From a virus, in the IMG/VR virus record IMGVR_UViG_3300023184_007611, positions 37,046 through 101,045 of that record: a DNA stretch of 64,000 nucleotides; one strand, written 5' to 3'. This document shows positions 14,215 to 47,180 of this stretch, one piece after another (position 1 is the stretch's first letter; each line of letters opens with the position of its first letter). The notes beneath the pieces were generated by a model, which was given only the letters and a program-made list of their open reading frames with translations, was not told the DNA's origin and did no database searches. The position numbers were made by a program, and so were the translations under genes.

Positions 14215-14493
14215 ATGAAATCATTTAATTCATGGATGCATAAAAAAGAAAAAAAATACAACTTTGATGATGTACTCAGATTGGCTAAATTAGCTAATGT
14301 AGATAAAAAAGAACTAAATAAATATGAAGAAAAACAATTAATTGATGGTATTAATTCAGAAAAAGAACATGCAATCGGTAAATTTAATGTAATTGGTAAA
14401 AACGAAGAAAAAATACTTAAAATTGCTTTAGCTCACCTTGAAGAAGATAAAGAATATTATTCTAAGCTTAAAAATTGCGTAGAAAAGAAATGA
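14215..14493 (+). CDS. DUF5661-like protein with tag-like N-terminus
   Basis: This 92-residue protein starts MKSFNSWMHKKEKK, a polar variant of the short tag seen on the proteins listed under the tag finding. The rest contains LIDGINSEKEHAI and the C-terminal KIALAHLEEDKEYYSKL, which together match the phage/bacterial DUF5661 pattern (GIN-x-E-x-EHG ... IAxAHLxE-x-xYY-x-xL). Function of that family is unknown to me. Here the tag lacks the (I/L)-x-E ending, so membership in the tagged set is uncertain. It lies in a co-directional run with a small Cys-rich protein and a C39-like peptidase. Confidence 0.65.
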   Translation: MKSFNSWMHKKEKKYNFDDVLRLAKLANVDKKELNKYEEKQLIDGINSEKEHAIGKFNVIGKNEEKILKIALAHLEEDKEYYSKLKNCVEKK

Positions 14494-14505
14494 AATTTAA
14501 TAGAC

Positions 14506-14658
14506 ATGCAAGAAAACATAGACTTTTATTACGATGACAATGGATTAATGGTGCTTACTAAGGAATTTTTATTAAAAAGAGGAAAATGTTGTAAAAGTGG
14601 CTGTAAAAATTGTCCTTATGACTTACATGAAGAAAATATAAATTTAAACAAAAGTTAA
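14506..14658 (+). CDS. Small Cys-rich DUF5522-like protein
   Basis: A 50-residue ORF that fits in the short gap between two larger genes. It reads MQENIDFYYDDNGLMVLTKEF, then RGKCCKSGCKNCPYDLHEE. The motif RG-x-CC-x-x-GC-x-x-CPY is the hallmark of the small DUF5522 family, where a Cys cluster probably binds a metal. No function is established. The start is twelve bases after the stop of the DUF5661-like gene, without a strong ribosome binding site, and translation may be coupled. The conserved cysteine cluster makes it very unlikely to be a chance ORF. Confidence 0.75.
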   Translation: MQENIDFYYDDNGLMVLTKEFLLKRGKCCKSGCKNCPYDLHEENINLNKS

Positions 14659-14715
14659 TAATTTATTTGCTCAATAATGAATAAATAAAGTATAATTCTT
14701 CACATGAGGTGTAAT

Positions 14716-15870: not shown

Positions 15871-16551
15871 ATGAAAAGTTTTGAAATTTATTTAATTGAA
15901 CAAGATTTAATTCAAACCATCGGCATCTCAAGAAAACAATTGTATTGTGAAAGTTTATTAAAAGAAAATTTTCAAGTAAATGAATTTCTAAGTTTATTGC
16001 CATCTATGCTTGGTTTACTCGGATCAAGCAAACCTAAAGATGTTGAAAGTGAAGTAAAACAAAAAGATAAAAAATCATTTGTTATAGAATTTTTAAAAAG
16101 TGCTGTTAAAAAATTGGGATTGTTAGTTGTTATTGGTGCATTACTTTACTTAGGTGTAAAAACTGGAATAATAGCACAGTTATTAGGCTGGGCTGGGACT
16201 ATAATTAAAAATATAGTTATGTGGATACTTTCTTTTGCTGGGGATAAAATTAAAGCAATGCTAGAAAAAGCTTATGTAGAATTCAATGGTTTTGTAGTTG
16301 ATACTGCATCACAAATTAATGATAAAACTGGAGAAGCTGGAGAATATCTAAAAGATCTATTCAAAAAAGGCACTGGAACATTTGGAAATCCAGATGTTGG
16401 TAATGCTTGGAAGAATCCACAAGAAACAGATTTTCTAGGAAGAGGCAGAACTATTTTAACTCCAAAAGAAGATCCCAAGCCAATAGATTGGGATGGAATA
16501 AATGATTTCTTTAGAGATAAAAAATTAATTGATCCAGGTTTGTTAAAATAA
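15871..16551 (+). CDS. Tagged membrane protein, paralogue of the 21088 gene product
   Basis: The 226-residue protein begins MKSFEIYLIEQDLI, a member of the tag family with L-I-E at positions 8-10. After a polar region there is a hydrophobic segment LGLLVVIGALLYLGV at about residue 87, then IIAQLLGWAGTIIKNIVMWIL, so one or two membrane segments are likely. The C-terminal 80 residues are soluble and Gly/Pro/Asp-rich. The protein at 21088 shares the tag, the FI-x-SA-x-KK-(L/I)-G entry and the hydrophobic core. AAAGGAACATATTATG is a clear ribosome binding site. I infer a virion-packaged protein that could insert in a membrane on delivery; this is untested. Confidence 0.65.
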   Translation: MKSFEIYLIEQDLIQTIGISRKQLYCESLLKENFQVNEFLSLLPSMLGLLGSSKPKDVESEVKQKDKKSFVIEFLKSAVKKLGLLVVIGALLYLGVKTGIIAQLLGWAGTIIKNIVMWILSFAGDKIKAMLEKAYVEFNGFVVDTASQINDKTGEAGEYLKDLFKKGTGTFGNPDVGNAWKNPQETDFLGRGRTILTPKEDPKPIDWDGINDFFRDKKLIDPGLLK

Positions 16552-16688: not shown

Positions 16689-16691
16689 ATT

Positions 16692-17855: not shown

Positions 17856-20200
17856 ATCTTATAATCCCTTGCTTCTCTTGTAGAATCTCCTCTGTATGCT
17901 TTATCAATCTGTTCTGGAGATGCTTGTTGCTGTTGCTGTTGTTCTGGGAATATAGATTTATAACCTTCTTCTCCAACTTTATCTTTTATTAAATCTCTTG
18001 TAGTTCTTGGTATCTTTTCGTTTCCAATTGTATCTACAATAAATTTGATAGTTGAAATTGCATCATTATCTATTTTTTCAAAAGACCACTTTAATATTTT
18101 TGCAAATAAATTTATACTAGTATTTTCATGATTTTGACTTATATCAGAATGATGAGTATCTTTTTCATAACGATCAATATCTCTGGCATCGTCTAATTTT
18201 GAAGCAAAATTCTGAAAGAATCTTCTGAACATAACAATGTATTTAGAACTACCACCAAGATAGCCTCTCATCTTTTGAATTAGATCTGGTATGCTATTAA
18301 TTGGCATTTTATTTGAATAGCTGCTTAAAACATGCAATAAATTTATAATTTTAACTTTGTCATCGTGAAATTGATAAAATTTGCTCTTCATACTATCATG
18401 GTTACTTAATATATCATCTATTAAAACTTGACATTTTGAACTTGATCTTAAAAAATCAGTCAAAAATTTAACATTGTTTTTGTTTTTCTGTTTTAAAATT
18501 TCAGATATAAAATCAGAATTTTTACAAGTAATTAAATTTTTTATTTCATCCGTAAATTCTAAGCTTGGATTTTCTTCATATTTTCTAAAAAAACTATAAG
18601 AAGTTGATATGACATCTTTAAAATAACCTTTAAATAATGTTTTGAATTCTGCTTTCTTATCTTCTGGAAGATTAAGATAATCATCTAACTTTATATAATT
18701 ATATTTATCGTGATTACTATTATTTGGTGATATAAATCTAGTACCATCACCTTTAAACAAGGTTTTAATTTCTGTTTTTTTATCTTCTGGGAAATTTAAA
18801 TAATCTTCAAGTTTTATTGAATTGCTTAACATTAAATTTGAAACATCATTTTTAAACAAGGTTTTAATTTCTGTTTTTTTATCTTCTGGAAGATTTAAAT
18901 AATCTTCAATTTTCATATTGCCATGTGATATATAATCTTTAATTTTATCGCCATATTTTTCTGCCAACTCTTGTTTGTATTTTGGTGGCATGGCTAAATA
19001 TTCTTGTGCTCCTAGCTGTTTATTTGGTAGGCCATTCATTCTTGCGTTAAGATAATTTAATTTTAAATCTTTAAAATAAGGATTGTTAAGAACAAGGTTC
19101 AATTGCTTACCATGCAAAATTATACCAAGTGATACATGTATTTTTAAAAGTGGCTCAGATCTAGTTGTAACTAGAAAATTGAATTGTTCATCTGAAAGGG
19201 CGTGTCCTCTACTAAGATAATTCTTTCTTTCTTCATATGTTAAAGATTTGAACCATTCTAAGTCAAGATTGCTGTTACCTAATTTTTCATGTTCTGATTC
19301 TTCTTTTGGTGTTTTTGGTTCATTTTTAAAGACAGTGGTATCAACGCCTTTTTCTTTTAAATATTTAAAATATAAATCTGGGTCTGATGTTATTCTTTTT
19401 GGTGTAGTTTCATATGGATCTTGCATGAAACCATTTGTTTGATTTTGTCCATCAGTAATTTCAATACCGTTTCTCGTAGCATCAACTACAACGACTTTAA
19501 GATCATCCCCAAGATTTCTTGTATTATCATAAACAAAGTAGAAAGTTGAATCTTTGGTATTCCTGTAACCATGAAATTGTGAATTGCCAGGTTGAGATAT
19601 GCAAAACCTTTGGCCTCTACCAAGAATAATACACTTGTCAACTGCGTTAGCTTTATAAACCTTTATCTTTTCATCTGGTGATTTTGCAATTAATTCTTGA
19701 TCGCTTACATCCCCTGTGGTTTTTTGTAAGGTTTGGTGGAATTTCTTTTTTTCTTCATCTTCATTTTCGCTATTTTTAGAATGTACAGCAGATGCCCAAT
19801 CAATATAATTTGAATATGGATTTCCTGTATCTTTGGGTTTCCCTATAATATAGTTCCCAGTTACAACTCCATTATCATCAAATGATAAAATAGGAAGTTG
19901 GTTTGCTATTACAAATTTATAATAGTCTTTTAAATCTTGAGAGAATTCTCCTTCGCCAACTGATGGGTTTGTTTTGTACACATAAGCTGCTGTTGGATAA
20001 ATGTTTTTTTGTTGTGCTTCAGGAATGCCAGAAGCGGTAAATATCTTATTGAATTCATTTGTTGTTTTTATAATATTAGGATCAGTACTAAGAACAGGCT
20101 TGCCAGCATTATCAACTGTATTACCAAGTATTTTAAAAGCCAAAGCCTTTGGTTTTAATTCTTCTAATATTAATAGCCATTCTTGAAAATTAAAGTTCAT
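17852..20200 (-). CDS. Large tagged protein with YFVYD domain and LPEDKK repeats
   Basis: A 782-residue protein beginning MNFNFQEWLLILEELK, the shared tag with I-L-E at its end. Residues about 20-290 form a domain shared with the product of 36187: CIILGRGQRFCISQ, YRNTKDSTFYFVYDNTR, and TPKRITSDPDLYFKYLKEKG. The pattern W/C-x-L-G-x-G-x-x-(F/W)C(I/L)S followed by STFYFV(Y/F)D is one I associate with uncharacterised proteins of large phages and algal viruses. The middle has at least three repeats of (I/D)DYLNLPEDKK-x-E-x-KTLFK, and the C-terminus is helical with a Gln run. It is probably a packaged protein. The next gene upstream on this strand overlaps by 4 bases. Confidence 0.7.
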   Translation of the reverse strand: MNFNFQEWLLILEELKPKALAFKILGNTVDNAGKPVLSTDPNIIKTTNEFNKIFTASGIPEAQQKNIYPTAAYVYKTNPSVGEGEFSQDLKDYYKFVIANQLPILSFDDNGVVTGNYIIGKPKDTGNPYSNYIDWASAVHSKNSENEDEEKKKFHQTLQKTTGDVSDQELIAKSPDEKIKVYKANAVDKCIILGRGQRFCISQPGNSQFHGYRNTKDSTFYFVYDNTRNLGDDLKVVVVDATRNGIEITDGQNQTNGFMQDPYETTPKRITSDPDLYFKYLKEKGVDTTVFKNEPKTPKEESEHEKLGNSNLDLEWFKSLTYEERKNYLSRGHALSDEQFNFLVTTRSEPLLKIHVSLGIILHGKQLNLVLNNPYFKDLKLNYLNARMNGLPNKQLGAQEYLAMPPKYKQELAEKYGDKIKDYISHGNMKIEDYLNLPEDKKTEIKTLFKNDVSNLMLSNSIKLEDYLNFPEDKKTEIKTLFKGDGTRFISPNNSNHDKYNYIKLDDYLNLPEDKKAEFKTLFKGYFKDVISTSYSFFRKYEENPSLEFTDEIKNLITCKNSDFISEILKQKNKNNVKFLTDFLRSSSKCQVLIDDILSNHDSMKSKFYQFHDDKVKIINLLHVLSSYSNKMPINSIPDLIQKMRGYLGGSSKYIVMFRRFFQNFASKLDDARDIDRYEKDTHHSDISQNHENTSINLFAKILKWSFEKIDNDAISTIKFIVDTIGNEKIPRTTRDLIKDKVGEEGYKSIFPEQQQQQQASPEQIDKAYRGDSTREARDYKI

Positions 20201-20921: not shown

Positions 20922-21101
20922 ATGGAAGAAATGATTGATTGTTATGAGTGTTCATTTTGTAAATTAAAATTCAATTGTAATAGTTATTGGAAAGGCCAAG
21001 GAAATCCAAATAAATGCCCTGAATGTAACTGTGAACAATTAATTTATAAATATTGTGCAATAATATATTTAAATTCTAGGACTCCTAATGAAAACATTTG
21101 A
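20922..21101 (+). CDS. Small zinc-ribbon protein
   Basis: A 59-residue ORF with two Cys knuckles: C-Y-E-C-S-F-C at residues 7-13 and C-P-E-C-N-C at 32-37, typical of a small zinc ribbon. The sequence starts MEEMIDCYECSFCKLKF. The last 14 bases overlap the start of the tagged gene at 21088 in another frame, so the two are probably translated from one message. TATATATAAT lies just upstream as a possible -10 element. A regulatory or nucleic-acid-binding role is plausible; nothing more can be said. Confidence 0.65.
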   Translation: MEEMIDCYECSFCKLKFNCNSYWKGQGNPNKCPECNCEQLIYKYCAIIYLNSRTPNENI

Positions 21102-21555
21102 AATTTACATGATTGAAGAAGATTTTTTAAGAACATATAATTTAAAAAGAAATGAACTTTTTTTAGAAATTTTTGGGTTTTTTGATATAGCACCATCACA
21201 AGGACCAGCATATTCAAGAGAATTCGCAAGCAGGAAAAATACAAACCCAAGGAAGGTATTCATTTCTGATGATGATACCTTGTTTGATAAATTTATTCAA
21301 AGTGCAATGAAAAAAATAGGAACACTTGCGGTTGCTGGTGCTTTGCTTTTTCTTAAGTTTTCATATAAATCAATTTATCACATTCTTAGATTTGCTGGAA
21401 AAATATTGATAAAAATATTAAAATATTTAGGTGCAATAAGTGCAAATGTATTAAACAATTTATATATTTCACTTAAAGATTATCTTAAAAAAAGCAACGA
21501 TTTTACAGTTGAAGAAAAACAAAAAATAGAAGAAAAATTAAATAAAAATAAATAA
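21088..21555 (+). CDS. Tagged membrane protein, paralogue of the 15871 gene product
   Basis: The 155-residue protein begins MKTFEIYMIEEDFL, the closest match in this window to the T4 capsid-targeting sequence (which starts MKTYQEFI). Residues 70-110 hold FIQSAMKKIGTLAVAGALLFLKF and a second hydrophobic helix, as in the product of 15871. The end is a charged helix ending in a Lys/Glu run. It is shorter than its paralogue and lacks the Gly/Pro-rich tail. The two copies are 5 kb apart and similar mainly in the tag and hydrophobic core. A role as a packaged, membrane-active protein is inferred. Confidence 0.65.
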   Translation: MKTFEIYMIEEDFLRTYNLKRNELFLEIFGFFDIAPSQGPAYSREFASRKNTNPRKVFISDDDTLFDKFIQSAMKKIGTLAVAGALLFLKFSYKSIYHILRFAGKILIKILKYLGAISANVLNNLYISLKDYLKKSNDFTVEEKQKIEEKLNKNK

Positions 21556-25297: not shown

Positions 25298-25337
25298 TAA
25301 ATGATCATCATAAGCAATAAAATATATAAATAAATCT

Positions 25338-27056
25338 ATGGACTTTAAAAAATGGTTATTATTAATTGAAACAGATGTTAAGAACTGGGAAAATGAAATA
25401 AAATCTTCTTCTTACAGTAGATCTTTTGCATTTGAAAATTGGTTTCCTACAGAAGGCAGAGTTTATATTCCATTTGAATCAGAAGAATCAGAAGATTCAA
25501 AAATTGATAAAGATATAGAAAACTATTTTAAAGACCATGAAAAGTATGAAATATTAGATTATCCTAAAGGATTAGCTGCTGATAAAATTTCAAAAAGACC
25601 AATGAAAATTGGAAAAATATTAGAAATGGAAGCTAAAAAAGAAGAAAATAAAATAAAATCATCTTATGAAAACAAACAAATTTCAGATATTAAATATCAA
25701 GACGAATTAAAATGGCATAAAGAATACTACAAAGGCCTTTTATCTACATTCACTTCGTCTAAGTATAGAGTTGGAGTTAAATCTACATCACCATATATGA
25801 TAGTCTTCAGTAGCATTCCTGAAGATATTGCTGCAATGTCTACTAATCGTAATTGGACATCATGTATGAATCTTCAAGGTGGAGCAAACAGAGAAAGCGT
25901 ATTTTGTGAAATAAAAAATGGTGGATTTATAGCTTATCTTTGTCTTAAAGATGATAAAAATATTGAAAAACCATTAGCAAGAGTGCTTATCCGTAGATTT
26001 GATAATAAAGCAGGTAAATCAATAGCAGTATTAGAAGAAAGTGTTTATGGAAATTCTTTAGATGGATTCGAACAACAAGTTCAAAAATGGATTGATTCAA
26101 AACAAGGTAAAATAAAACCAGCTAAATATATTCGCAAAGGTGGCTGGCATTCAGATACATTTGGAACTGCTGACCCTGATGATAGTGTTCAACGACAACG
26201 CAGAGATATGACAAAAATATTTTATCCCAAAACAGCTGATGGTCTGTTTAAAATGCTAGAGAAAAAAAGAGAACCAGAAGTCACAAGAGACATATTACAA
26301 AAGTTACTTGATCCAAATTTAGTACTTGATGAAGAAAACAAAACTAAACTTATTAATTTAATAAACTCTGAATGGACTATCAATACTTTTGTATACAATC
26401 TTTACGCTGCTGATTTCAAAAGAAAATTATTTTTAAAATATCCTGAACTTTTAAATAACCAAGAATTTTCTAATTTAAGAACTTATGATCGAGAAAAATT
26501 AGCTAGAAATAATCCAAAATTTAAAGAACTTCAAAAAGATTTAGCAATTAATGCAATATTATCTTTTGACCCAAGCAATCCATCTTTAAAAATACACAAT
26601 CCTGAATATGGTAGACCAGAAGCTTACAGTCAAATTACTGATATTGTTTTAGATTTTTCTGGTACAGGCAAATTAACAGAACCTTTAATTCGTAAATTAG
26701 TTGAAATTTCAGAATACTTTTTAAAAATATATGAAGCTGAAAAAGATAAAAGTTGGGGAGGGCCATTTGGAATCATCAAACATATCCTTGGTTTTTTAAG
26801 CAATGGAGATGCAGATACACCTACTGTCATAAAATTTTACAGTCGTTTATTACCATATTTTAACGATGATTTATTTATGGATGGATTAGGAACTGCATTG
26901 GCTCGATTAGGAGAAAATGGCAGACAATTTTTGCCATTTTTACAACAAAAATTACAAGAATCTAAAGATAATAAATATATGACAGAAAAATATGAATATG
27001 TTATAGATTCTATTGAAAATGGTACTGGTAGATCAAATAAATATAAATTTTATTAA
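25338..27056 (+). CDS. Tagged protein with PcfJ-like core
   Basis: The 572-residue protein starts MDFKKWLLLIETD, tag ending L-I-E. A central stretch at about residues 170-215 reads NRNWTSCMNLQGGANRES, then GGFIAYLCLKDD and PLARVLIRRF. The W-x-x-C core followed by two strands is reminiscent of PcfJ-like proteins of plasmids and phages, whose function is unclear. The C-terminal 250 residues are helical repeats. The spacer just before the gene contains TATAAATA, which equals the T4 late promoter consensus. Since the tag resembles a capsid-targeting sequence, I infer a packaged protein. The order and size are close to the tagged protein at 34461. Confidence 0.65.
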   Translation: MDFKKWLLLIETDVKNWENEIKSSSYSRSFAFENWFPTEGRVYIPFESEESEDSKIDKDIENYFKDHEKYEILDYPKGLAADKISKRPMKIGKILEMEAKKEENKIKSSYENKQISDIKYQDELKWHKEYYKGLLSTFTSSKYRVGVKSTSPYMIVFSSIPEDIAAMSTNRNWTSCMNLQGGANRESVFCEIKNGGFIAYLCLKDDKNIEKPLARVLIRRFDNKAGKSIAVLEESVYGNSLDGFEQQVQKWIDSKQGKIKPAKYIRKGGWHSDTFGTADPDDSVQRQRRDMTKIFYPKTADGLFKMLEKKREPEVTRDILQKLLDPNLVLDEENKTKLINLINSEWTINTFVYNLYAADFKRKLFLKYPELLNNQEFSNLRTYDREKLARNNPKFKELQKDLAINAILSFDPSNPSLKIHNPEYGRPEAYSQITDIVLDFSGTGKLTEPLIRKLVEISEYFLKIYEAEKDKSWGGPFGIIKHILGFLSNGDADTPTVIKFYSRLLPYFNDDLFMDGLGTALARLGENGRQFLPFLQQKLQESKDNKYMTEKYEYVIDSIENGTGRSNKYKFY

Positions 27057-30269: not shown

Positions 30270-30290
30270 TTACAAATAAACTATTAAACT

Positions 30291-30327
30291 AAAAACTCTT
30301 TTTCATTAAATCGAAGAAGAGTTTTTT
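30291..30327 (+). terminator. Intrinsic terminator after the fibre gene
   Basis: AAAAACTCTTTTTC pairs with GAAGAAGAGTTTTT (one mismatch) around an 8-base loop and is followed by more T residues. It lies 21 bases after the fibre stop codon. Confidence 0.8.
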
Positions 30328-30351
30328 TATTTTCACACTTATATAAAGTAC

Positions 30352-31817: not shown

Positions 31818-31851
31818 AATAAATATTAAACTATTGATCAATATATAAACT

Positions 31852-33267: not shown

Positions 33268-33274
33268 ATAAACT

Positions 33275-34453: not shown

Positions 34454-34460
34454 ATAAACT

Positions 34461-36197
34461 ATGAACTTTAAAGAATGGTTATTATTATCTGAAAACACAA
34501 ATATTGCTCAATTATTAAAGCAATCCAATGATCCAATAATTAAACAAATTAAATCAAATGTAACAAAACTTGTAAATGCTTTCGCTCACAACATAAAAGA
34601 AAACATCAAATCCACTTTCATTAACTTTTATACTTGGAACTTTTATAATTCAAAAGAATCAAACTTTCAAACACACATTTATTCCACTAAAGATTATTTA
34701 ATGGCTAATTACCAAAAACTAAATTTAACCGATCCAAACTTCACACTTGAACAACTAACACAAGAATCAGATGAATGGCACGAAGAATTAGAAGCAAACC
34801 AAGCAATCCCAGCTAGAGAAGCTGAAACTTTTATAGATTTATCTCATTTAGGATCTCAATGGAAAGGCTGGCGATGGGTTTCCTTAGATCGTTATAAGTG
34901 CGAAATGGAAGCAAAAAGTGGTGGGCATTGTGGTAATGCTGCTGGTATAGAAGGAGATAACATACTATCTTTAAGAGATCCGCAAAATATAGCAAATCTT
35001 ACTTTTATCGAAAATAAAGGAATATTAGGCGAAATGAAAGGCATTAAAAATTCAAAACCATCTACAAAATTTCATCAACCAATAATAGAATTACTTAAAA
35101 ATGACAAAATAATAACCATCAAGGGCGGTGGGTATTTACCAAAAAATAATTTTTCATTAGATGATTTAAGTAATAAAGAAGAAATACTTAAATTAAAACC
35201 AGATTTGGATTTTGTAAACTATAATTCAAAACCAGAAAAAATAAAATATCTTACTGATGAAGACATTGAATATCTATTTGATAAAGCAAAAGACAAAGAA
35301 AAAATAGAAAATTTAGTTATTCAAAATAAACAAGATCTTTCCGATGACAATGTTCACCAGTTACTTAAAAATACAAAAAACACATACGAAATGTCAAAAA
35401 TAATAATTAAAAAGAACCCACAACTTTCTGATGCTATTGTTCTTTATTTACTTGAATTTGCACATGACAAAGACGATATGGCTAAAATTATTTTAAATAA
35501 CAAACCAACAATTTCTACTAAAGATGTTTCTACTTTACTTGATAAAGCAACTAACAAAGACGAAATAGCAAAATTAATTATTGAGAAAAATACAGAATAT
35601 GGAAGTAATAAAGTTGTTAATGATAATAAAATTTATTTCTTACTTTATCATGCAATTGATAAAGAAAGCATAGAAAAACTATTAGGAGCGTACAGCTTAA
35701 ATAAGCTTTTTGATAGTACTGTTGCTGAATTTCTTAAATCTTCTAAAGATAAAGACAAAACGGCAGAAATAATCATAAAATACAAAACAAAACTTTCTAG
35801 TAACAATGTTTATAATTTGCTTCATTTTGCAAAAAATAAAGCAAGTATAGCGAAACTATTAGGAGCATATAATATAAGCAATATTTATGAGTTTGATATT
35901 TCTAATTTGCTCCATTTTGCAATCGACAAAGACAAACTGGCGGAAATAATCATAGATTATAAAACAAATTTTGATAATGAGAGTGTTTATATTTTGCTTT
36001 ATTATGCAGTTAACAAAGAAAATATAGCAAAGCTGTTAGGAACAGATAATATAAACAAGCTCGAATTAACTTCTATTAATCGTCTGCTTGATTTTCCGCC
36101 AGATAAACAAAAAATGGCACAAGTTTTAAATCACTATCACACAAAGAAAACACCAGAAATTCAAGAGCTAATAGATAAATACCTACATGAACTTTAA
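34461..36197 (+). CDS. Tagged protein with PcfJ-like core and helical repeats
   Basis: The 578-residue protein starts MNFKEWLLLSEN (tag, L-S-E). Residues about 120-220 hold WKGWRWVSLDRYKCE, GGHCGNAAG, ILSLRDPQNIANLTFIE and GILGEMKGIKN, a block like the H-C-V-G-x core of PcfJ-like proteins. From about residue 270 to the end there are some ten helical repeats of about 35 residues with patterns such as V-x-x-LL-x-x-A-x-DK-x-x-(M/I)-A-(K/E)-(I/L)-I. The end PEIQELIDKYLHEL overlaps the next tagged gene by 11 bases. A decayed copy of this end sits at 52995. No enzyme class can be named. I infer a packaged protein. Confidence 0.65.
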   Translation: MNFKEWLLLSENTNIAQLLKQSNDPIIKQIKSNVTKLVNAFAHNIKENIKSTFINFYTWNFYNSKESNFQTHIYSTKDYLMANYQKLNLTDPNFTLEQLTQESDEWHEELEANQAIPAREAETFIDLSHLGSQWKGWRWVSLDRYKCEMEAKSGGHCGNAAGIEGDNILSLRDPQNIANLTFIENKGILGEMKGIKNSKPSTKFHQPIIELLKNDKIITIKGGGYLPKNNFSLDDLSNKEEILKLKPDLDFVNYNSKPEKIKYLTDEDIEYLFDKAKDKEKIENLVIQNKQDLSDDNVHQLLKNTKNTYEMSKIIIKKNPQLSDAIVLYLLEFAHDKDDMAKIILNNKPTISTKDVSTLLDKATNKDEIAKLIIEKNTEYGSNKVVNDNKIYFLLYHAIDKESIEKLLGAYSLNKLFDSTVAEFLKSSKDKDKTAEIIIKYKTKLSSNNVYNLLHFAKNKASIAKLLGAYNISNIYEFDISNLLHFAIDKDKLAEIIIDYKTNFDNESVYILLYYAVNKENIAKLLGTDNINKLELTSINRLLDFPPDKQKMAQVLNHYHTKKTPEIQELIDKYLHEL

Positions 36198-37899
36198 AAG
36201 CTGGCTATTAATAACTGAAGCAAAGAAATCAAGCGACATTGCCAAAGAACTTCTCGGCAACGATGATTTATTTAAAAAAATAAAATCTATCATTCCAACA
36301 AATATACCAGAAAAATTACAAGGTCAATTACTTCCTATCGCTGCATTCTACTACAACCAAGAAGAACCACAAATTGTGGTTCTAAAAGACTACTTGGAAG
36401 ATTATGCCAATCTTGTAAAAAATCAAAAAATGAACATCATTACAGTAAAAGATGACCTTACTGTTGATGGCGATTTTAAATCTTTTATCCATTGGACTGA
36501 AATAATTGATGTTTTAACCCATGAAGGCAAAGTTATCAATACACCAATACAAGGCGATCTTGAAGGCCAAGAAGTAATCGAACATTCACCAGACCTTAAG
36601 ATAAAGGTTTATCTGGCAAACTCAGCAAATCAATGTATCGTACTCGGCAAAGGTGAATCTTTCTGTATATCAAGACACGGCCCACATAATATGTTCCAAA
36701 CTTACAGAGATACTAAAGTATCAACTTTCTACTTCGTTTATGATAACACAAGAACTGATGACCTTGCAATTACTGTAGTTGATGTAACAGAACATGGTAT
36801 TGAACTTACAGATCGAAAAAACGACACAGCAAAAACTATGCAAGATCCTTATCAAACTACACCAAAAAGAATAACATCAGACCCAGATTTATACTTTAAA
36901 TATTTAAAAGAAAAAGGAATTGATACAACTGTATTCAAAAATATACCAAAATCACCAGAAGAAGAAGCCGAACAGGAAAAATTAGGTAAAACAAATTATA
37001 ATTTAAATTGGTTTAAAGCACTATCACCAATAGAAAAATCTAATTACATAGGAAGAGTACATAGACTTTCAGATCCTCAATTTGATTACATACACGATAA
37101 CAATATTGCTTCATTATTAAAACAATATGTTAAGACTGGTTTGAAACTTGAAAATTATCAGCTTAAAAAAGTTATTGCTAAAAAAGAATTAAAAGATATT
37201 TATTTACATAATAGATTGATATTAGATAGGCAAAATGAAGATCTTTCTAAAGAAGAATTTAATTTATTTACACCAAAACAACAAGAGGAGTTTTATAATG
37301 TTACTGATGAATTAAAAATTCACAAAGCTCTTCAAATTGAAGACTTTTCTCTGGTAACAGAATTGATCGAAAAAGGACAAAGCGTCCCATATTATGCTGC
37401 TGGTCACGCAATAAAGGCAGATAGACTTGACCTATTAAAATATTTTGTAAAACACGGTATGATATTACAAGACTCTAATTCGATTATGTATGCAGTAAGA
37501 TATGGCAGGCTTGATATTTTAAAATACTTGATTGAAGAAAAAAATATTAATGTAGTCCCAACTGATATCGAAGAAGCTTTTAGAAAAGATAATGTTGATA
37601 TTATAAGATACTTAATTGATGAAAAAAAACTCCGCATGCCTTATAATGCTGTTGATATTGCAGCAAGTAATGGAAGTATTAATGTTTTAAAATACTTGAT
37701 TGATGAAAAAAATAAAATTTTTACATCTAGTAATGTAAAATCTGCAAGCCTTTCTGGAGAACTTGATGTTTTAAAATACTTTTTTGATGAAAAAAGTTTT
37801 ATGCTAGAACCTAAAGATTTTCCATTTACTATCAATAATGCAAAAACACAAATAGTTAAAGATTATTTAATACAAAAACAAAAAGAACAAAATAAATAA
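36187..37899 (+). CDS. Tagged protein with YFVYD domain and ankyrin repeats
   Basis: This 570-residue protein begins MNFKSWLLITEA (tag, I-T-E). Residues 20-290 share the domain of the 17852 product: CIVLGKGESFCISR, YRDTKVSTFYFVYDNTR, TPKRITSDPDLYFKYLKEKG. The C-terminal 180 residues are ankyrin-like, with five units such as G-(R/S)-L-D-(I/V)-LKYL-(I/F)-(D/E)EK. The same front domain is thus joined to different rear ends in the two paralogues. Ankyrin repeats normally bind proteins, so a host target is conceivable. The start overlaps the previous gene by 11 bases. Confidence 0.7.
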   Translation: MNFKSWLLITEAKKSSDIAKELLGNDDLFKKIKSIIPTNIPEKLQGQLLPIAAFYYNQEEPQIVVLKDYLEDYANLVKNQKMNIITVKDDLTVDGDFKSFIHWTEIIDVLTHEGKVINTPIQGDLEGQEVIEHSPDLKIKVYLANSANQCIVLGKGESFCISRHGPHNMFQTYRDTKVSTFYFVYDNTRTDDLAITVVDVTEHGIELTDRKNDTAKTMQDPYQTTPKRITSDPDLYFKYLKEKGIDTTVFKNIPKSPEEEAEQEKLGKTNYNLNWFKALSPIEKSNYIGRVHRLSDPQFDYIHDNNIASLLKQYVKTGLKLENYQLKKVIAKKELKDIYLHNRLILDRQNEDLSKEEFNLFTPKQQEEFYNVTDELKIHKALQIEDFSLVTELIEKGQSVPYYAAGHAIKADRLDLLKYFVKHGMILQDSNSIMYAVRYGRLDILKYLIEEKNINVVPTDIEEAFRKDNVDIIRYLIDEKKLRMPYNAVDIAASNGSINVLKYLIDEKNKIFTSSNVKSASLSGELDVLKYFFDEKSFMLEPKDFPFTINNAKTQIVKDYLIQKQKEQNK

Positions 37900-37902: not shown

Positions 37903-39168
37903 ATGAACTTTAAAAGCTGGCTAATACTATCTGAAAATATAATCGTAAAATGGCAAAAAGATGATGCTGTTTTGATTCCTGCTAAAGATGTCATTTCTTT
38001 TGATTTTTATTATCAATGGGATAAAGGACATTCTGAATACTTTATAGGTGCTTTTAAAGCTGAAAAAAATGGCTACTCTTCAATTGGTGCTAAGTCAACT
38101 CATGTAGGCATAATTAGAAATTCTCCCCTTCATGCTGGTTCAGGAGCAGATTATGGGTTTATTAAAAACTTAATACAAATAATTCAAAAAAATGGATTAA
38201 AACCCATTCCTTATAAAGAAGAAGGTACATTCATTGATAAACATATTTCTAATGCTGAAAAAGAAATAGGACAAAAACTTGATGTAGATCTAGTAAAAAC
38301 TGGCTTTACAACTGGCCAAGAATTACCTGATTTTGAACTAGGACAATCTGCCACTCATCAATTGACAAAAAGTGTTTCTGTTTCTAGAGCTACAGGATCA
38401 TGGGCACAATTCTTTGAAACTATTGATGCAACATCTTTAATTAATAAACTTGTAGATTTTATGGAACAAGCTGCAAAACCTTTGTTAGATAATGATCTGC
38501 TAGACTTTATTGAAATTATTAATAGAAAAAGCGGAAACCACAGAACAATTTATTCTTCTAAAGGTAAAAAAGATTCAGAAGACTGGAAGGCTAATAATAT
38601 TAAAGCTGTATCTCAATTAAAATTTTATGTTGATAAATACTTAACCAATGCTCCTTTTTTAAAAAAAGAATTACTAAAAATAATAAACATAGAAGGATCT
38701 AAAAATGCAGATAAATGGTTCGGGGCAAAAGCAGTACCTAAAGATTATGCGTTACCATTAGATAAATTGTTTGAATTAAACAACAACTCATATGCAGAAG
38801 ATAGTATTATTGATGCGTTTCTTAAAGCAATAAATAATCAAGATAAAATAGAACAATTGGAAATTCTATCAAAAAATCAAAACCTTGATTCCGTTTATTA
38901 TTTAAAGAGTTATTTTTGGGCTAACGAATTCTATGAAGATATGTTTACATCTGATAATATTTTTAATTATCTTATTAATGTTTATGAAATAGTTGTTAAA
39001 CATGGAAAAGCACTTAAGTCTGCATTACAAGAACATTTTGATTACTTCTTGAAAAATATCAAAGAATCATTAGAAGAAGCTTTATCTGATAAGCCTTTTT
39101 TAAGCAAAAATAATATTAAATATTTATCAGAAATAGCTCCTGTTATAGGACTTAAAATTTTACAATAA
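37903..39168 (+). CDS. Tagged protein of unknown fold
   Basis: A 421-residue protein starting MNFKSWLILSEN (tag, L-S-E). The first 130 residues include WQKDDAVLIPAKDVISFDFYYQW, HVGIIRNSPLHAGSG and a Gly-rich patch GADYGF, perhaps a compact alpha/beta domain. The rest is helical. I do not recognise a family and see no clear catalytic motif. It is the fifth member of an uninterrupted co-directional block of tagged genes separated by 3-10 bases, so it is very likely a co-expressed late gene. Confidence 0.6.
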   Translation: MNFKSWLILSENIIVKWQKDDAVLIPAKDVISFDFYYQWDKGHSEYFIGAFKAEKNGYSSIGAKSTHVGIIRNSPLHAGSGADYGFIKNLIQIIQKNGLKPIPYKEEGTFIDKHISNAEKEIGQKLDVDLVKTGFTTGQELPDFELGQSATHQLTKSVSVSRATGSWAQFFETIDATSLINKLVDFMEQAAKPLLDNDLLDFIEIINRKSGNHRTIYSSKGKKDSEDWKANNIKAVSQLKFYVDKYLTNAPFLKKELLKIINIEGSKNADKWFGAKAVPKDYALPLDKLFELNNNSYAEDSIIDAFLKAINNQDKIEQLEILSKNQNLDSVYYLKSYFWANEFYEDMFTSDNIFNYLINVYEIVVKHGKALKSALQEHFDYFLKNIKESLEEALSDKPFLSKNNIKYLSEIAPVIGLKILQ

Positions 39169-39175
39169 ATAAACT

Positions 39176-40201
39176 ATGAACTTTAAACAATGGCTATTAA
39201 ATGAAACCTTTAAACAGACCCCACTGTTAAAGAATCTACATGATTATTTAACAAAACAACACATAAGCGATAAACAATTCATGATTGAATTCTTGAATTG
39301 GTTTGATGAACATCAAGATGATTTAAGAGAATTAGAAGTAGATTGGAAAGATGCAAAAAAACCATATGTACTAGACCATGAAACAAACCAAGAATATGAT
39401 CCTGAAGAAGCTGATGATCATCAATATGCAACTAAGGAATTCTATACTTCAGCAATAGAAATGTATTTAAACGATACATTGAAATTAAACTTAAATAAAG
39501 ATTTTAAACATGTCCAAAAAATAAAAGAGTTTTTAGATAAACCAGAAAATTACTATTTTCTCAGTAGTTTTAAAGAATATATACTTCATAATTATATAAA
39601 CTTTGAAGATTCCATGGACCAAACTTCTGGACATAGATTTTATATTTTTAAAAAATTATTAAATCCAAATAACTGGCTTCTACATTTTACAAATAATGCA
39701 GAATCTATTAAAAGAAATGGATTTAAATTTGGCGTGACAAATTTTGATGATCTGCCTCTTACTAGAATATATGGCTACGATAGAAATAAAGCTGGATATA
39801 ATTTTGCATACCTTTCTAAAGATTATCACACCTCAGACATACCAACTACATATTTAAATACTCATGATCATAAAGAATCTCCAAATAGCGGACTTCTTAT
39901 GTTTAAAAGCTCTGGAGTTCTTGTAGATAATCTTGCAGATCACAATGAGGAAGTTATATTTGATGGAAGTAGTATAAATCCAAAAAATATTGTCGTAATT
40001 AAACCAGAGCGAAGAAAAATATTATTTGTTAACAACCCAGAAAATGGTGGTAAAACAGATGTGTCACCACAAGATAATTATGAAAAATGGATCGTTAAAT
40101 CACAAAACTCCAAATTACCAGACCCTTTCTCTGGTACTATTCAAGATGCAATTCAATGGGTAAAAAATAATTGGAATACTAGTAAAAATATTATATTATA
40201 A
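39176..40201 (+). CDS. Tagged ADP-ribosyltransferase-like protein
   Basis: The 341-residue protein begins MNFKQWLLNETF (tag, L-N-E). The C-terminal half reads NWLLHFTNNAESIKRNGFKFG, later DLPLTRIYG, AGYNFAYLSKD, SGLLMFKSSGVLV and NEEVIFDGS. An L-x-H-F-T strand, a Y-x-F-A-(Y/F) strand and E-E-V-I-F in this order match phage ADP-ribosyltransferase-like domains of the H-Y-E type, where His and Tyr hold NAD and Glu is catalytic. T4 packages three such enzymes (Alt, and relatives ModA and ModB made early), so a packaged ART is plausible. The assignment rests on motif order only. It ends the six-gene tagged block. Confidence 0.65.
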   Translation: MNFKQWLLNETFKQTPLLKNLHDYLTKQHISDKQFMIEFLNWFDEHQDDLRELEVDWKDAKKPYVLDHETNQEYDPEEADDHQYATKEFYTSAIEMYLNDTLKLNLNKDFKHVQKIKEFLDKPENYYFLSSFKEYILHNYINFEDSMDQTSGHRFYIFKKLLNPNNWLLHFTNNAESIKRNGFKFGVTNFDDLPLTRIYGYDRNKAGYNFAYLSKDYHTSDIPTTYLNTHDHKESPNSGLLMFKSSGVLVDNLADHNEEVIFDGSSINPKNIVVIKPERRKILFVNNPENGGKTDVSPQDNYEKWIVKSQNSKLPDPFSGTIQDAIQWVKNNWNTSKNIIL

Positions 40202-40393: not shown

Positions 40394-42790
<2,397 letters not shown>

Positions 42791-42804: not shown

Positions 42805-43680
42805 ATGGAAACTTTTAATAATTTTGTAAATAAAAAAAATATTAAAGTATATAATGAATTTTTTAATTTTAGAAAAAATTTATTAGTAAATAATGAATAT
42901 ATTGTTGACCAACAAAACAAAAAAATTATTGAAAATTCCTTATCTGATTATTTAAGCAAAGACAATCCTACAAAAGAACTATTAAAAGATTTATCAAGCA
43001 AAGGTTATTCTTATAAAAACTTTCCACTAGAAGAATTGCAGAAAATAGTACTGCTTTTCTTGCATAAAAATAGCCCAAAAGAAATTGAATATATCATGTC
43101 GCCTTTATCAAGAGATTTTTCTGAAAGAAATCCATTTGCAATTAACGATTCTTTTGCTGATTTGATGCTGAACCCTTCTTTTCAAAGAAGTTTAATTGAT
43201 AATTTAGATGATTATAAAAAATACAATGGGAAAATTAAACAAATATTTGATTTATTAATTGATTGGGTTCTTTTTAAATTAAAAGGAGAAGATTACATCA
43301 AATTTATTCTATATTTAAATGATGATGAATTAGAATATGTTTTTGAAACATTATATAAATATAATTACGGCACGAAAATAACAATTGATAATTTATTTCA
43401 ACTAATAAATACTAAAAAAAATGCTCCAGCATCGTATTTTGAAAGATTAATAAATGCATTTGTTACTAATAGAAATACAAATGATAAAGAAATTGCAATT
43501 TTGGAAAGATTTATCGAACAATACAATAAAAACAATCCCAGCGATCCCATCAATCCAGTTAATTTTGATGACTTAAGAATGAAAAATTTTACCAAAAAAA
43601 GACCATCTGCTACAGATTCATTAAAAGCCATAGGCGTTTCTTTTTTAGCAAACATGGCAAATAAATTTAAACTTAAATAA
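42805..43680 (+). CDS. Hypothetical protein with tag-like N-terminus
   Basis: The 291-residue protein begins METFNNFVNKKNIKVYNEFFNFR after a strong site (AAAGGGAG). The first residues resemble the tag family but lack the (I/L)-x-E end. Most of the rest is helical: LSDYLSKDNPTKELLKDL, FADLMLNPSFQRSLIDNLDDY, FKLKGEDYIKFILYLNDDELEYVFE. A basic stretch FTKKRPSATDSLKA is near the end. I recognise no family. It follows the giant stalk gene by 14 bases and is likely co-transcribed with it, so a virion or assembly role is plausible. Confidence 0.55.
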   Translation: METFNNFVNKKNIKVYNEFFNFRKNLLVNNEYIVDQQNKKIIENSLSDYLSKDNPTKELLKDLSSKGYSYKNFPLEELQKIVLLFLHKNSPKEIEYIMSPLSRDFSERNPFAINDSFADLMLNPSFQRSLIDNLDDYKKYNGKIKQIFDLLIDWVLFKLKGEDYIKFILYLNDDELEYVFETLYKYNYGTKITIDNLFQLINTKKNAPASYFERLINAFVTNRNTNDKEIAILERFIEQYNKNNPSDPINPVNFDDLRMKNFTKKRPSATDSLKAIGVSFLANMANKFKLK

Positions 43681-44060: not shown

Positions 44061-44119
44061 CTTGCATAAATATCATTATTAATATTATAATAATCGTAAC
44101 CCTAACCCTATGGATTACG

Positions 44120-46561
44120 ATGAATAAAATATCTAATCACGAATTGAAAAGTAATAATCTGGTGAAGAAACTTGCTTTATTTTATAGAAAAAATAATAAT
44201 TACCCATGTCGCAAAGACAATTTAGCTTTATATAATTTTTTACTAACTAAAAGAAGCGTCTTTAAAAGTAAATCAATTAAAAATAAAATATATCCTTCGG
44301 ATATAGAAGTTGCTAAACTACACGGACTTCCAGATGATTGGCTATCCACTAAAAATGAACAAGAATTGAAAAGTAATAATCTGGTAAAGGAACTTGCTTT
44401 GTTCTATAGAAAAAACAATGATTATCCATGTAAAAAATCTAATTCAATTTTATATTATTTTTTACAGAATAAAAGAAGAAGCTTTAAACATAAATCAAAT
44501 AAAAATAGAAATAAAAATAGAAATAAAATATATCCTTCAGATATAGAAGTTGCTAAATTACACGGACTTCCAGATGATTGGTTCTCAACTAGTAATGAAC
44601 TTGAAAGTAACCAAAAAATAATCAAAATTGCAGAACATTTTAAAAAACATGGAACTTATCCTTCTAGAAAAACATTATTAGGCAAACACTTAACTAACAA
44701 ACGATCTAGTAAAGATGGAACATATAAAATATATCCATCAGATATAGAAGTCGCTAAAGCTCATGGACTTCCTGATGATTGGATGTTACTCATCAATCGT
44801 GAATTTGAAAGTAACGAAAGAATAAAAGAACTTGCACAAGAATTTGTAAGACTTGGAAATTATCCTAATCGTAATACTAAACTTGGACAACTACTAGCAT
44901 GGAAAAGACACATATATAAAAAATACATTATTGGCAAACAAAAAAAATATAAGGCTCTTTGGTATCCTTCAGATATAGAAGTAGCTAAAATTCATGGACT
45001 TCCTGATGATTGGCTCTCCATTAGCAATGAATTTGAAAGTAATCAAAAAGTAATTGAAATAGCACAATACTTTAAAACACATGGAGCTTATCCTGATTAC
45101 AATTGTAAAATTGGAGTTTCATTGTCAAATAAAAGACTAAGTTATAAAAAACACACTAATAGTAAAAAATGTAATCTCAAATGGTATCCATCAGATATAG
45201 AAGTCGCTAAATTACACGGACTTCCAGACGATTGGATTATAAATACTGATCTTGAAAAGGAAAGTAATCGAAAAGTAATTGAAATAGCACAATACTTTAA
45301 AACACATAATGATTATCCTGATTACAATTGTAAAATTGGAGTTTCATTGTCAAATAAAAGACTAAGGTATAAAAAACACACTAATGGTAAAAAATTTAAT
45401 TCCAAATGGTATCCATCAGATATAGAAGTCGCTAAAGCTCATGGTCTACCAGATGATTGGATTATCAATAATAATTTTGAATTAGAAAGTAACCAAAAAG
45501 TAATATTATTAGCACAAGAATTCACTAAAATTGGAAACTATCCTGATATAAATTCTACAAATGGAAAATTCTTAAAATATAAAAGAAAAGCATTCAAACA
45601 CTATACCAATAAAACTAAATCAAAATATAAATGGTATCCATCAGATATAGAAGTCGCTAAAGCTCATGGTCTACCAGATGATTGGATTATCAATAATAAT
45701 TTTGAATTAGAAAGTAACCAAAAAATAACTAAAATAGCACAATACTTTAAAACACATGGAATCTATCCCAATAGTAAAATTGGGATTGGGAGATTTTTAA
45801 AAAATAAAAGAAAAGCATTCAAACACTATACCAATGGAACTAAATCAAAATTAAAATATACATGGTATCCTTCAGATATAGAAGTCGCCAAAGCTCATGG
45901 GCTTCCTAACGATTGGATGCTGATTATTGATTTTGAAAAAGAAAGTAATCAAAAAGTAATTGCACTAGCACAAGAATTTAAAAAAATCGGAAACTATCCA
46001 GACAATTATTCTTTAAATGGAAGACTGTTGATTACTAAAAGACAAGCATTCAAACACTATACCAATGGAACTAAATCAAAATTAAAATGGTATCCTTCAG
46101 ATATAGAAGTCGCTAAAGCTCATGGGCTTCCTAACGATTGGATGTTAGTTAAAAAACAAAAATCATCATTAGGAGAAAGAAAAACAAATTTTATACTCGA
46201 AAAATTTAACATTAAACCAATACAACAGTACAGACATAAACTTTGTGTCAATAAATTGTGCCTGCCTTTTGATTTCTATTTCAATAAAGATAACTTACAC
46301 TATTTCATAGAATACAACGGAGAACAACATTATAAACCAATCTACGGAAAAACACAAATTATAAAAAAAGAACATTTAAAATATGTTCAAACAAACGACC
46401 TAATTAAATTAAACTTCTGCAAAAAAAATAACTACCCACTTCTAGTAATACCTTATTGGATAAAAGATTTCGAAAACCTTATATCAGAATTCTTAAAAAC
46501 TACACAATTTGATCCAAACTTCGCTCAACCAATTATTCCAAATTTACCTGAATTAAATTAA
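44120..46561 (+). CDS. Nuclease with nine helicase-associated-like repeats
   Basis: The 813-residue protein carries nine tandem repeats of 68-80 residues. Each has a helix ESNQKVIEIAQ-x-FK, a G-x-YP turn, a G-x-x-L-x-x-KR helix, a K-rich loop, and the closing WYPSDIEVAKAHGLPDDW. This resembles the helicase-associated (HA) DNA-binding repeat. After the last repeat comes SLGERKTNFILEKF and a nuclease domain: PFDFYFNKDNLHYFIEYNGEQHYKP and PLLVIPYW, closely matching the ends of the two zinc-ribbon nucleases at 31852 and 33275. It lacks the tag. I infer a programmable-looking sequence-reading nuclease or homing-type enzyme. A repeat-wise DNA code is not shown. Confidence 0.75.
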   Translation: MNKISNHELKSNNLVKKLALFYRKNNNYPCRKDNLALYNFLLTKRSVFKSKSIKNKIYPSDIEVAKLHGLPDDWLSTKNEQELKSNNLVKELALFYRKNNDYPCKKSNSILYYFLQNKRRSFKHKSNKNRNKNRNKIYPSDIEVAKLHGLPDDWFSTSNELESNQKIIKIAEHFKKHGTYPSRKTLLGKHLTNKRSSKDGTYKIYPSDIEVAKAHGLPDDWMLLINREFESNERIKELAQEFVRLGNYPNRNTKLGQLLAWKRHIYKKYIIGKQKKYKALWYPSDIEVAKIHGLPDDWLSISNEFESNQKVIEIAQYFKTHGAYPDYNCKIGVSLSNKRLSYKKHTNSKKCNLKWYPSDIEVAKLHGLPDDWIINTDLEKESNRKVIEIAQYFKTHNDYPDYNCKIGVSLSNKRLRYKKHTNGKKFNSKWYPSDIEVAKAHGLPDDWIINNNFELESNQKVILLAQEFTKIGNYPDINSTNGKFLKYKRKAFKHYTNKTKSKYKWYPSDIEVAKAHGLPDDWIINNNFELESNQKITKIAQYFKTHGIYPNSKIGIGRFLKNKRKAFKHYTNGTKSKLKYTWYPSDIEVAKAHGLPNDWMLIIDFEKESNQKVIALAQEFKKIGNYPDNYSLNGRLLITKRQAFKHYTNGTKSKLKWYPSDIEVAKAHGLPNDWMLVKKQKSSLGERKTNFILEKFNIKPIQQYRHKLCVNKLCLPFDFYFNKDNLHYFIEYNGEQHYKPIYGKTQIIKKEHLKYVQTNDLIKLNFCKKNNYPLLVIPYWIKDFENLISEFLKTTQFDPNFAQPIIPNLPELN

Positions 46562-46577
46562 TATTAATATATAAGCT

Positions 46578-47180
46578 ATGAACTTTAAACAATATTTTGA
46601 AAATGAAGAAATAGCAAATACAATATTCCTGTCAAACCATAAACAAAAGTTTGATAATATATTTGATGTGCTTAAAACTTTTGCAATTGAAGAGAATTTG
46701 CCACACCCAACAACTTATTTAAATCATGGAACTAATGCAATTATATTCGATACTACAAATCCAAATGTAATAGCAAGAATAGTATGGCTGAATTCACCTA
46801 TGCTTGGTAGGAAAAGCTGTGATAAAGTTATGGCACAAAAACAATTTCAAAACTCTGGCGGTGTATGTAGAATATATCTCCATGAAGATAATTATGAAGA
46901 TATTGATGGAAATACACACGAAATTACCTATAAGGAAAAATTAAATACTAAATGGCAAAATTATATAAAAGAACAATATCCAAATGATGCAAATAATATT
47001 ATTAAAATACTATCAAATATGAATGCATCATATAGATATGAAGATTTAAATTATTTAAATGACTTTGATTCCCTAAAGAACCTCGTTAATGCAATAAGAC
47101 TTGGATTGCCAACATTTGACTTGCATGCTGATAATTTTGGCATAGATAAAAAAAATAACATAGTTGTTGTAGATTGTTAA
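46578..47180 (+). CDS. Tagged kinase-like protein
   Basis: The 200-residue protein starts MNFKQYFENEEIAN, a looser tag. It has NHGTNAIIFDTTNPNVIARIV, comparable with the Gly loop and the VAIK-like strand of small kinase-fold proteins, an acidic helix, then GLPTFDLHADNFGID and IVVVDC at the very end. DLHADN matches the H-x-D-x-x-x-x-N catalytic loop of aminoglycoside-kinase-like folds and the final D the metal-binding Asp. The C-lobe beyond that Asp is absent, so the fold is minimal. It may phosphorylate a host factor or be an inactive relative. It stands alone after the repeat nuclease gene. Confidence 0.6.
   Translation: MNFKQYFENEEIANTIFLSNHKQKFDNIFDVLKTFAIEENLPHPTTYLNHGTNAIIFDTTNPNVIARIVWLNSPMLGRKSCDKVMAQKQFQNSGGVCRIYLHEDNYEDIDGNTHEITYKEKLNTKWQNYIKEQYPNDANNIIKILSNMNASYRYEDLNYLNDFDSLKNLVNAIRLGLPTFDLHADNFGIDKKNNIVVVDC

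What the first reader, a model, noticed from the sequence alone, without database searches (positions are those of the whole stretch)
14215..47180. Shared N-terminal tag on about sixteen proteins, likely a capsid-targeting and cleavage signal for a packaged effector set
Seen: proteins at 15871, 17852, 21088, 25338, 31852, 33275, 34461, 36187, 37903 and 39176 begin with M-(N/K/D)-F-K-x-W-L-L-x-x-E or M-K-(S/T)-F-E-I-Y-x-I-E, and weaker versions occur at 14215, 16551, 16692, 40262, 42805 and 46578. Nine of the ten strong tags end in (I/L)-x-E (ITE, ISE, LSE, LIE, LNE, ILE); the 21088 tag ends MIE. Their bodies are unrelated: nuclease, ART-like, kinase-like, GNAT, ankyrin and membrane proteins. 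Known: T4 internal proteins carry an N-terminal capsid-targeting sequence starting MKTYQEFI, cut by protease gp21 after (I/L)-x-E. Inferred: these are proteins packed in the head and injected with DNA, a large version of the T4 internal-protein system.
Basis: partly seen in the sequence, partly recalled or inferred. Interest (0 to 1): 0.95.

Follow-up and report, generated by a model that had tools for sequence, protein, structure and literature searches.

The report
Capsid-packaging tag on many phage proteins
A very large virus of bacteria puts the same short address label on the front of a dozen or more otherwise unrelated proteins, and the evidence says the label loads them into the virus head so that they can be injected with the DNA, a scaled-up version of a trick known from phage T4.

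Summary
The shared N-terminal tag is real. In the 101-kb virus record holding this window, 13 of 126 predicted proteins carry it (0.26 expected, maximum 3 in 2,000 shuffles). The tag recurs on 4-20 proteins in each large related contig (2-3 in a 12.5-kb one), and on 35 in LR756511, a 595-kb uncultured phage. Its key positions (aromatic, aromatic, I/L, E) match those that experiments on T4 IPIII assign to capsid targeting and gp21 processing; a pattern with exact IPIII spacing hits T4, P-SSM2, LR756511 and 11 of 13 contigs searched. Tag-bearing relatives encode the T4 head cluster portal-gp21-gp22-gp23, with an S77 prohead protease whose candidate catalytic residues are conserved, and an I-x-E site in the capsid-protein N-terminus. 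About half the tagged genes have a T4-late-promoter-like element 2-9 nt before the ATG, against 6% of other genes. Bodies are enzyme- and effector-like. The window's own contig is a fragment without head genes, and no virion was examined, so packaging, cleavage and injection are inferred. Best reading: a greatly expanded T4 internal-protein system in huge, possibly planctomycete-infecting phages; a new variant of a known kind.

The parts
15871..15900 (+). tag MKSFEIYLIE (exact T4 IPIII spacing: F4, Y7, L8, E10) on the 226-aa membrane-helix protein 15871-16551
   Evidence: paralogue at 21088 and homologue in G008
20162..20200 (-). tag MNFNFQEWLLILE on the 782-aa protein 17852-20200 (same family as 36187)
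21088..21117 (+). tag MKTFEIYMIE on the 155-aa protein 21088-21555 (exact T4 spacing)
25338..25370 (+). tag MDFKKWLLLIE on the 572-aa protein 25338-27056
   Evidence: same tag on the G017 orthologue
25325..25332 (+). TATAAATA, identical to the T4 late-promoter consensus as I know it, 5 nt before the ATG of 25338
31852..31884 (+). tag MNFKSWLLITE on the 471-aa HNH/DUF4379 nuclease-like protein
31842..31848 (+). TATATAA late-promoter-like element 3 nt before the ATG of 31852
33275..33307 (+). tag MNFKHWLLISE on the 392-aa paralogue of 31852
33265..33271 (+). TAAATAA element 3 nt before the ATG of 33275
34461..34493 (+). tag MNFKEWLLLSE on the 578-aa repeat protein
   Evidence: 50% identical N-terminal half in tagged G010_65298
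34451..34457 (+). TAAATAA element 3 nt before the ATG of 34461
36187..36219 (+). tag MNFKSWLLITE on the 570-aa ankyrin protein; N2, F3, W6 and E11 invariant in 7 homologues at 35-69% identity
36175..36181 (+). ATAAATA element 5 nt before the ATG of 36187
37903..37935 (+). tag MNFKSWLILSE on a 421-aa protein of unknown fold
37893..37899 (+). TAAATAA element 3 nt before the ATG of 37903
39176..39205 (+). tag MNFKQWLLNE on a 341-aa protein; homologous body in gp21-bearing G006 starts with a different tag, MKSFMNWLRE
39166..39172 (+). TAAATAA element 3 nt before the ATG of 39176
46578..46607 (+). weaker tag MNFKQYFENE on a 200-aa kinase-like protein (phrog_18305, E = 1e-4)
14215..14250 (+). weaker tag MKSFNSWMHKKE on a 92-aa protein with homologues in G006, G014 and LR756511
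16692..16715 (+). weaker tag MKFKLWFE on a 128-aa protein (GNAT-like by eye only)
42805..42837 (+). doubtful tag METFNNFVNKK (no Glu) on a 291-aa protein

Best explanation
The tag is a capsid-targeting sequence of the T4 internal-protein type. Late in infection each tagged gene is transcribed, in many cases from its own T4-type late promoter lying directly before the start codon. The nascent protein's N-terminal M-(x)-F-x-x-(W/Y/F)-(L/I)-x-x-E segment binds the gp22-like scaffolding core of the prohead, and the protein is enclosed as the shell forms. The gp21-like S77 protease then cuts after the (I/L)-x-E and frees the body, which is later ejected into the next host cell with the DNA. The bodies (nuclease, ankyrin, kinase-like, and in relatives ADP-ribosyltransferase, cysteine-peptidase, tRNA-repair and zeta-toxin-like proteins) would be a swappable set of first-minute anti-defence and take-over proteins. 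Shown: the tag, its enrichment, its protein-level conservation, its link to the promoter-like element, and a gp21 head cluster in tag-bearing relatives. Inferred: binding to the core, cleavage, injection and the role of the bodies.
For: Enrichment: 13/126 N-termini versus 0.26 expected; 150/2,021 N-termini versus 9/7,067 internal Met in 12 contigs. Position match: T4 IPII/IPIII read MKTYQEFIAEA and IPI MKTFKEF in the T4 record; experiments put targeting at residues 4 and 7 and processing at 8 and 10; the exact-spacing pattern hits 11 of 13 tag-bearing contigs, T4, P-SSM2 and LR756511, with no backward-control hit in any of these and none forward in phiKZ. Cleavage-like Glu: selecting only on F-x-x-W-L, a Glu follows within 5 residues in 89% versus 25% in control windows, (I/L)-x-E in 58% versus 5%. 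Protease: PF03420 in 10 of 32 tag-bearing contigs and in LR756511, with conserved His, Ser and Asp that fit an S77 active site, between portal and gp22-gp23 as in T4; capsid N-termini carry LLENQRL(I/M)NE, an I/M-x-E site. Link to the window: tagged families 36187/17852 and 39176 recur tagged in gp21-bearing G006; sibling G008 is largely collinear with LR756511. Late timing: promoter-like element 2-9 nt before ATG in 64/137 tagged versus 103/1,613 untagged genes. Selection on protein: Asn, Phe, Lys and Leu codons vary synonymously; F3, W6 and E11 invariant among distant homologues.
Against: No protease, portal, capsid or terminase gene in the window's own 101-kb record, a fragment. About 40% of tags lack a strict (I/L)-x-E. 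Tag-bearing records G002 (381 kb) and G005 (189 kb) gave no S77 hit. No virion data. No tagged window protein matches a T4 internal protein or Alt. LR756511 is much higher in GC (42%) than the window and shares few genes with it directly (13 of 126).
Confidence: 0.83

Rival explanations
1. The tag is a targeting signal for something other than the prohead, for example an amphipathic membrane-binding helix or a signal for a phage-made intracellular compartment, and its likeness to the T4 sequence is convergence on short aromatic and hydrophobic residues.
For: The segment is short, hydrophobic and aromatic, and is predicted helical in the 36187 model; two tagged proteins, 15871 and 21088, have hydrophobic stretches by eye.
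Against: It does not explain the fixed Glu after (I/L)-x (89% versus 25%), the match to the four experimentally defined IPIII positions, or the co-occurrence with a T4 head cluster.
Confidence: 0.09
2. The tag marks virion packaging but not injection: the proteins are core or structural parts that stay in the head or are degraded.
For: In T4 some gp21 substrates (gp22, gp67, gp68) are core proteins destroyed during maturation. Small tagged or tag-like proteins lie beside the portal and protease genes in G004, G006 and G016.
Against: Most tagged bodies are large, unrelated and enzyme- or effector-like and lie far from the head genes; T4 proteins with such tags (IPI-III) are injected.
Confidence: 0.2
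3. The shared N-terminus is a by-product of DNA: a repeated late promoter with a downstream segment needed for near-leaderless translation, or recent duplication and recombination, with no function for the peptide.
For: A promoter-like element ends 2-9 nt before the ATG in 47% of tagged genes, few of which show a Shine-Dalgarno site in the window's clade; local tandem duplication is evident (31852/33275; G022 47450/49175/51044).
Against: Synonymous variation inside the tag; two DNA-dissimilar tag classes (MNFK and MKSF/MKTF); G007 tags (MGKFKEYLLNE) mostly have Shine-Dalgarno sites and lack the element; untagged genes share the promoter; F, W and E are invariant in 35-42% identical homologues.
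Confidence: 0.04
4. Chance or annotation artefact.
For: Two of the sixteen listed starts (16551, 40262) are not real tags.
Against: More than 50-fold enrichment at N-termini over internal Met.
Confidence: 0.005

Closest known systems
Phage T4 internal proteins IPI, IPII, IPIII with capsid-targeting sequence and gp21 protease (PMC9026906; Repoila et al. 1994; Silas et al. 2025, PMC12373910)
   Same: Short N-terminal tag with the same key positions, unrelated bodies, (I/L)-x-E at the tag end, S77 gp21-type protease and gp20-gp21-gp22-gp23 order in tag-bearing relatives.
   Different: Tag class MNFKxWLLxxE is one residue shorter at the front and has Trp; 13 to 35 tagged proteins per virus instead of about three in T4 (at least 10 known across T-even phages); bodies up to about 1,000 aa in relatives; promoter-like element abuts the start codon; no sequence match to T4 IP bodies.
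T4 Alt (virion ADP-ribosyltransferase)
   Same: Virion enzyme cut by gp21; an ART-PolyVal domain is found on one tagged protein of the related set.
   Different: No Pfam or PHROG match of a window protein to Alt; the ART call for 39176 is by eye and its fold prediction failed.
phiKZ / SPN3US inner-body and ejection proteins (PMC5694885)
   Same: Many proteins packed in the head and trimmed by an S77-family protease after Glu.
   Different: Those propeptides are mostly long (often over 100 residues), the site is (S/A)-x-E in phiKZ, and the tag patterns used here gave no hit in phiKZ.
Polyvalent proteins of P1 and relatives (PMC5512222)
   Same: Injected sets with ART, GNAT, peptidase and nuclease domains.
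   Different: There the domains are fused in long multidomain chains; here each activity has its own gene with a common tag.

Membership tests
T4 internal-protein / capsid-targeting-sequence system | 10-20 residue N-terminal signal with aromatic residues at 4 and 7, I/L at 8, Glu at 10 | tested here: met
   15871 and 21088 match IPIII spacing closely (21088 has Met at 8); the MNFK class has the same spacing shifted by one
T4 internal-protein / capsid-targeting-sequence system | Signal shared by otherwise unrelated proteins | tested here: met
T4 internal-protein / capsid-targeting-sequence system | gp21-type S77 prohead protease in the same genome | tested here: inconclusive
   absent from the 101-kb fragment; present in 10/32 tag-bearing contigs and LR756511
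T4 internal-protein / capsid-targeting-sequence system | (I/L)-x-E cleavage motif at the end of the signal | tested here: met
   58% versus 5% control; nine of ten strong window tags
T4 internal-protein / capsid-targeting-sequence system | Late expression | tested here: inconclusive
   late-promoter-like element in 64/137 tagged versus 103/1,613 untagged genes; no transcript data
T4 internal-protein / capsid-targeting-sequence system | Protein found in the virion, cut, and injected | not testable with these tools
   needs virion proteomics
T4 internal-protein / capsid-targeting-sequence system | Body homologous to IPI, IPII, IPIII or Alt (not required for the system) | tested here: not met
   no such PHROG or Pfam match for the ten window proteins scanned
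phiKZ-type ejection proteins | Long propeptides with (S/A)-x-E sites | tested here: not met
   tags are 10-13 residues with mostly (I/L)-x-E; no tag-pattern hit in phiKZ

The most novel reading that the evidence does not exclude
Huge T4-type phages, some probably infecting Planctomycetota, carry a plug-in cassette, a late promoter fused to a capsid-targeting tag, that turns any acquired gene into an injected protein; the tag alone lets one read out the predicted set of injected proteins (at least 13 in this 101-kb fragment, about 35 in a 595-kb genome), most of them unknown anti-defence or take-over proteins.
Probability: 0.6. Interest if true: 0.85.

Novelty: new variant of a known kind. Interest (0 to 1): 0.72.

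Why it matters
Which proteins large phages inject is largely unknown and usually needs proteomics of a cultured virus. Here a short sequence rule, tied to a late-promoter element, predicts the set directly from metagenomic DNA, for viruses of hosts that may never have been cultured with a phage. It points to dozens of new candidate anti-defence proteins and predicts a T4 protein, gp61.1 (MKTFKEFIKE), as a possible overlooked internal protein. T4 capsid-targeting tags already serve to load foreign proteins into heads, so new tag classes are also of practical use.

Tried and rejected
Megablast of 14000-38000 and tblastn of 36187 against cultured phages: no match. Structure of 39176: AlphaFold2 failed with 3 sequences (pLDDT 39), so the ART reading was not tested. 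Structure of 36187: good model (pLDDT 81), but PDB hits are only generic ankyrin repeats, so the N-terminal domain stays unidentified. PADLOC matches on tagged proteins are few and taken as incidental. A set of supposed negative loci turned out to include tag-bearing contigs (L015, L029, L068, L056); the other 14 gave no tags. The RaK2 'conserved N-terminal motif' concerns tail spikes, not this tag. The original T-even internal-protein paper (PMC395341) is not held. A generic membrane-targeting helix, a promoter by-product and chance were weighed and ranked lower, as set out under rivals.
Full report
What is there. The window is part of a 101,045-base IMG/VR virus record. Translating all frames confirms the ten strong tags and three or four of the weaker ones; 16551 and 40262 are not convincing, and three more tag-like starts lie outside the window. 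With a fixed rule (M, up to 3 residues, F, two residues, W/Y/F, hydrophobic, 1-4 residues, E) 13 of 126 predicted proteins match; shuffling residues 2-25 gives 0.26 on average and at most 3 in 2,000 trials. Across the record and 11 related contigs, 150 of 2,021 N-termini match but only 9 of 7,067 internal methionines.

How wide it is. A degenerate DNA pattern for MNFKxW(L/F)(L/F) found 75 stretches in viral contigs, most of them true gene starts on unrelated proteins. Eleven of these contigs were read whole: the ten of 70 kb or more each carry 4-20 tagged genes, against 0.1-0.5 expected, and a 12.5-kb contig carries 2-3. The closest public relative of their capsid protein is LR756511, an uncultured 595-kb phage with 77% capsid identity and 35 tagged proteins against 1.2 expected. 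T4 and the jumbo phages tested lack the MNFK class, apart from one chance-level match in XacN1 where the backward control also matched once; LR756511 has other tag classes.

What the tag resembles. In the T4 record the internal proteins begin MKTYQEFIAEA (IPII, IPIII) and MKTFKEFTS (IPI). Experiments summarised in PMC9026906 place capsid targeting at residues 4 and 7 and processing at 8 and 10. Tags such as MKTFYEWLNE, MKSFNEWLKE and, in the window, MKSFEIYLIE have aromatic, aromatic, hydrophobic and Glu at exactly these positions. A DNA pattern demanding that spacing hits 11 of 13 tag-bearing contigs, T4 (gene 61.1), P-SSM2 (two genes) and LR756511; the same pattern read backwards hits only once, in phiKZ, among 23 records. 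The MNFK class is the same with one residue fewer at the front. Choosing proteins only by F-x-x-W-L, so that Glu is not built in, a Glu follows within five residues in 89% (25% in control windows) and (I/L)-x-E in 58% (5%).

Protease and head genes. The S77 family of gp21 (PF03420) is present in 10 of 32 tag-bearing contigs, with T4 as positive control, and in LR756511. In seven contigs read it sits in the T4 order portal, protease, scaffold, capsid. Conserved His, Ser and Asp positions fit an S77 active site (assignment by analogy), and the capsid proteins' N-termini carry LLENQRL(I/M)NE near where T4 gp23 is trimmed. The window's record has none of these genes, nor terminase. It is tied to the clade in two ways. 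Tagged families of the window recur, tagged, in the protease-bearing contig G006 (36187/17852: 34-42% identity with N2, F3, W6 and E11 invariant; 39176: 31%). And contig G008, which shares 46 genes with the record at a median of 78% identity, is largely collinear with LR756511 over about 58 kb.

Promoter link. Leaving out G007, 64 of 137 tagged genes have TA(A/T)ATA(A/T), like the T4 late promoter TATAAATA, ending 2-9 nt before the start codon; 103 of 1,613 untagged genes do, and by eye some of those carry weaker tags. If spacing is as I recall for T4, transcripts would begin at or near the ATG. The tag is not a by-product of this: G007 tags mostly have Shine-Dalgarno sites and lack the element, tag codons vary synonymously, and many genes share the element without the tag.

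Bodies. HMM scans of 121 tagged proteins find ankyrin repeats, HNH/DUF4379 nuclease, an ART-PolyVal domain, a C39/C70-like peptidase, tRNA nucleotidyltransferase, polynucleotide kinase, NUDIX, GNAT, AAA_33 and zeta-toxin-like domains; most have no match. Some families occur tagged in one phage and untagged in another, for example the tRNA nucleotidyltransferase family, as expected for an add-on module. In T4 the internal proteins share only the leader and block different type IV restriction enzymes (PMC12373910).

Judgement. Packaging by a capsid-targeting tag is the best reading; cleavage by the gp21 homologue is next; injection and anti-host roles follow by analogy with T4. Literature searches in the held library found the T4 system, the phiKZ-type system and polyvalent proteins, but no description of this expanded, promoter-coupled tag set in huge phages. 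That is an absence in an open-access library only.

Noticed in passing
record position 29720-30676 (left of the window; L002:11720-12676): A DUF1559 (SBP_bac_10) protein with type IV pilin N-methylation motif, 74% identical to Planctomycetota MAG sequences: hints at a planctomycete host or gene capture. Whether the MAG contigs are themselves viral was not checked.
   Followed up: partly
upstream of most tagged genes, e.g. 25325-25332, 33265-33271, 39166-39172: A T4-late-promoter-like element 3-6 nt before the ATG with no Shine-Dalgarno site in many cases, suggesting near-leaderless late messages.
   Followed up: partly
39281-39310 (residues 36-45 of the 39176 protein): An internal MIEFLNWFDE aligns with the N-terminal tag MKSFMNWLRE of the G006 homologue, as if a second tag had been added in front of an older one.
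   Followed up: no
T4 record AF158101, gene 61.1 (complement 18966-19130): T4 gp61.1 begins MKTFKEFIKE, an exact-spacing tag; possible overlooked T4 internal protein.
   Followed up: no
P-SSM2 AY939844, 100269 and 158143: Cyanophage P-SSM2 has exact-spacing tags on a hypothetical protein and a protein annotated as cytitidyltransferase.
   Followed up: no
2148-5057, 10029-10670, 24473-25297, 40394-42790: Proteins with long Thr-rich TTTTTTKP/TTTTEAP repeats, one behind a beta-propeller; likely surface or adhesin proteins.
   Followed up: no
48545-51578: Four tandem HNH/AP2-like homing-endonuclease-type paralogues by eye.
   Followed up: no
G007 (L119:13270 to L120:7772): A different tag class MGKFKEYLLNE on a run of about ten neighbouring genes, mostly with Shine-Dalgarno sites and no late-promoter element.
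   Followed up: no
59695-63055: MoxR-type AAA ATPase followed by a VWA-like protein; homologues in G006 and G010.
   Followed up: no
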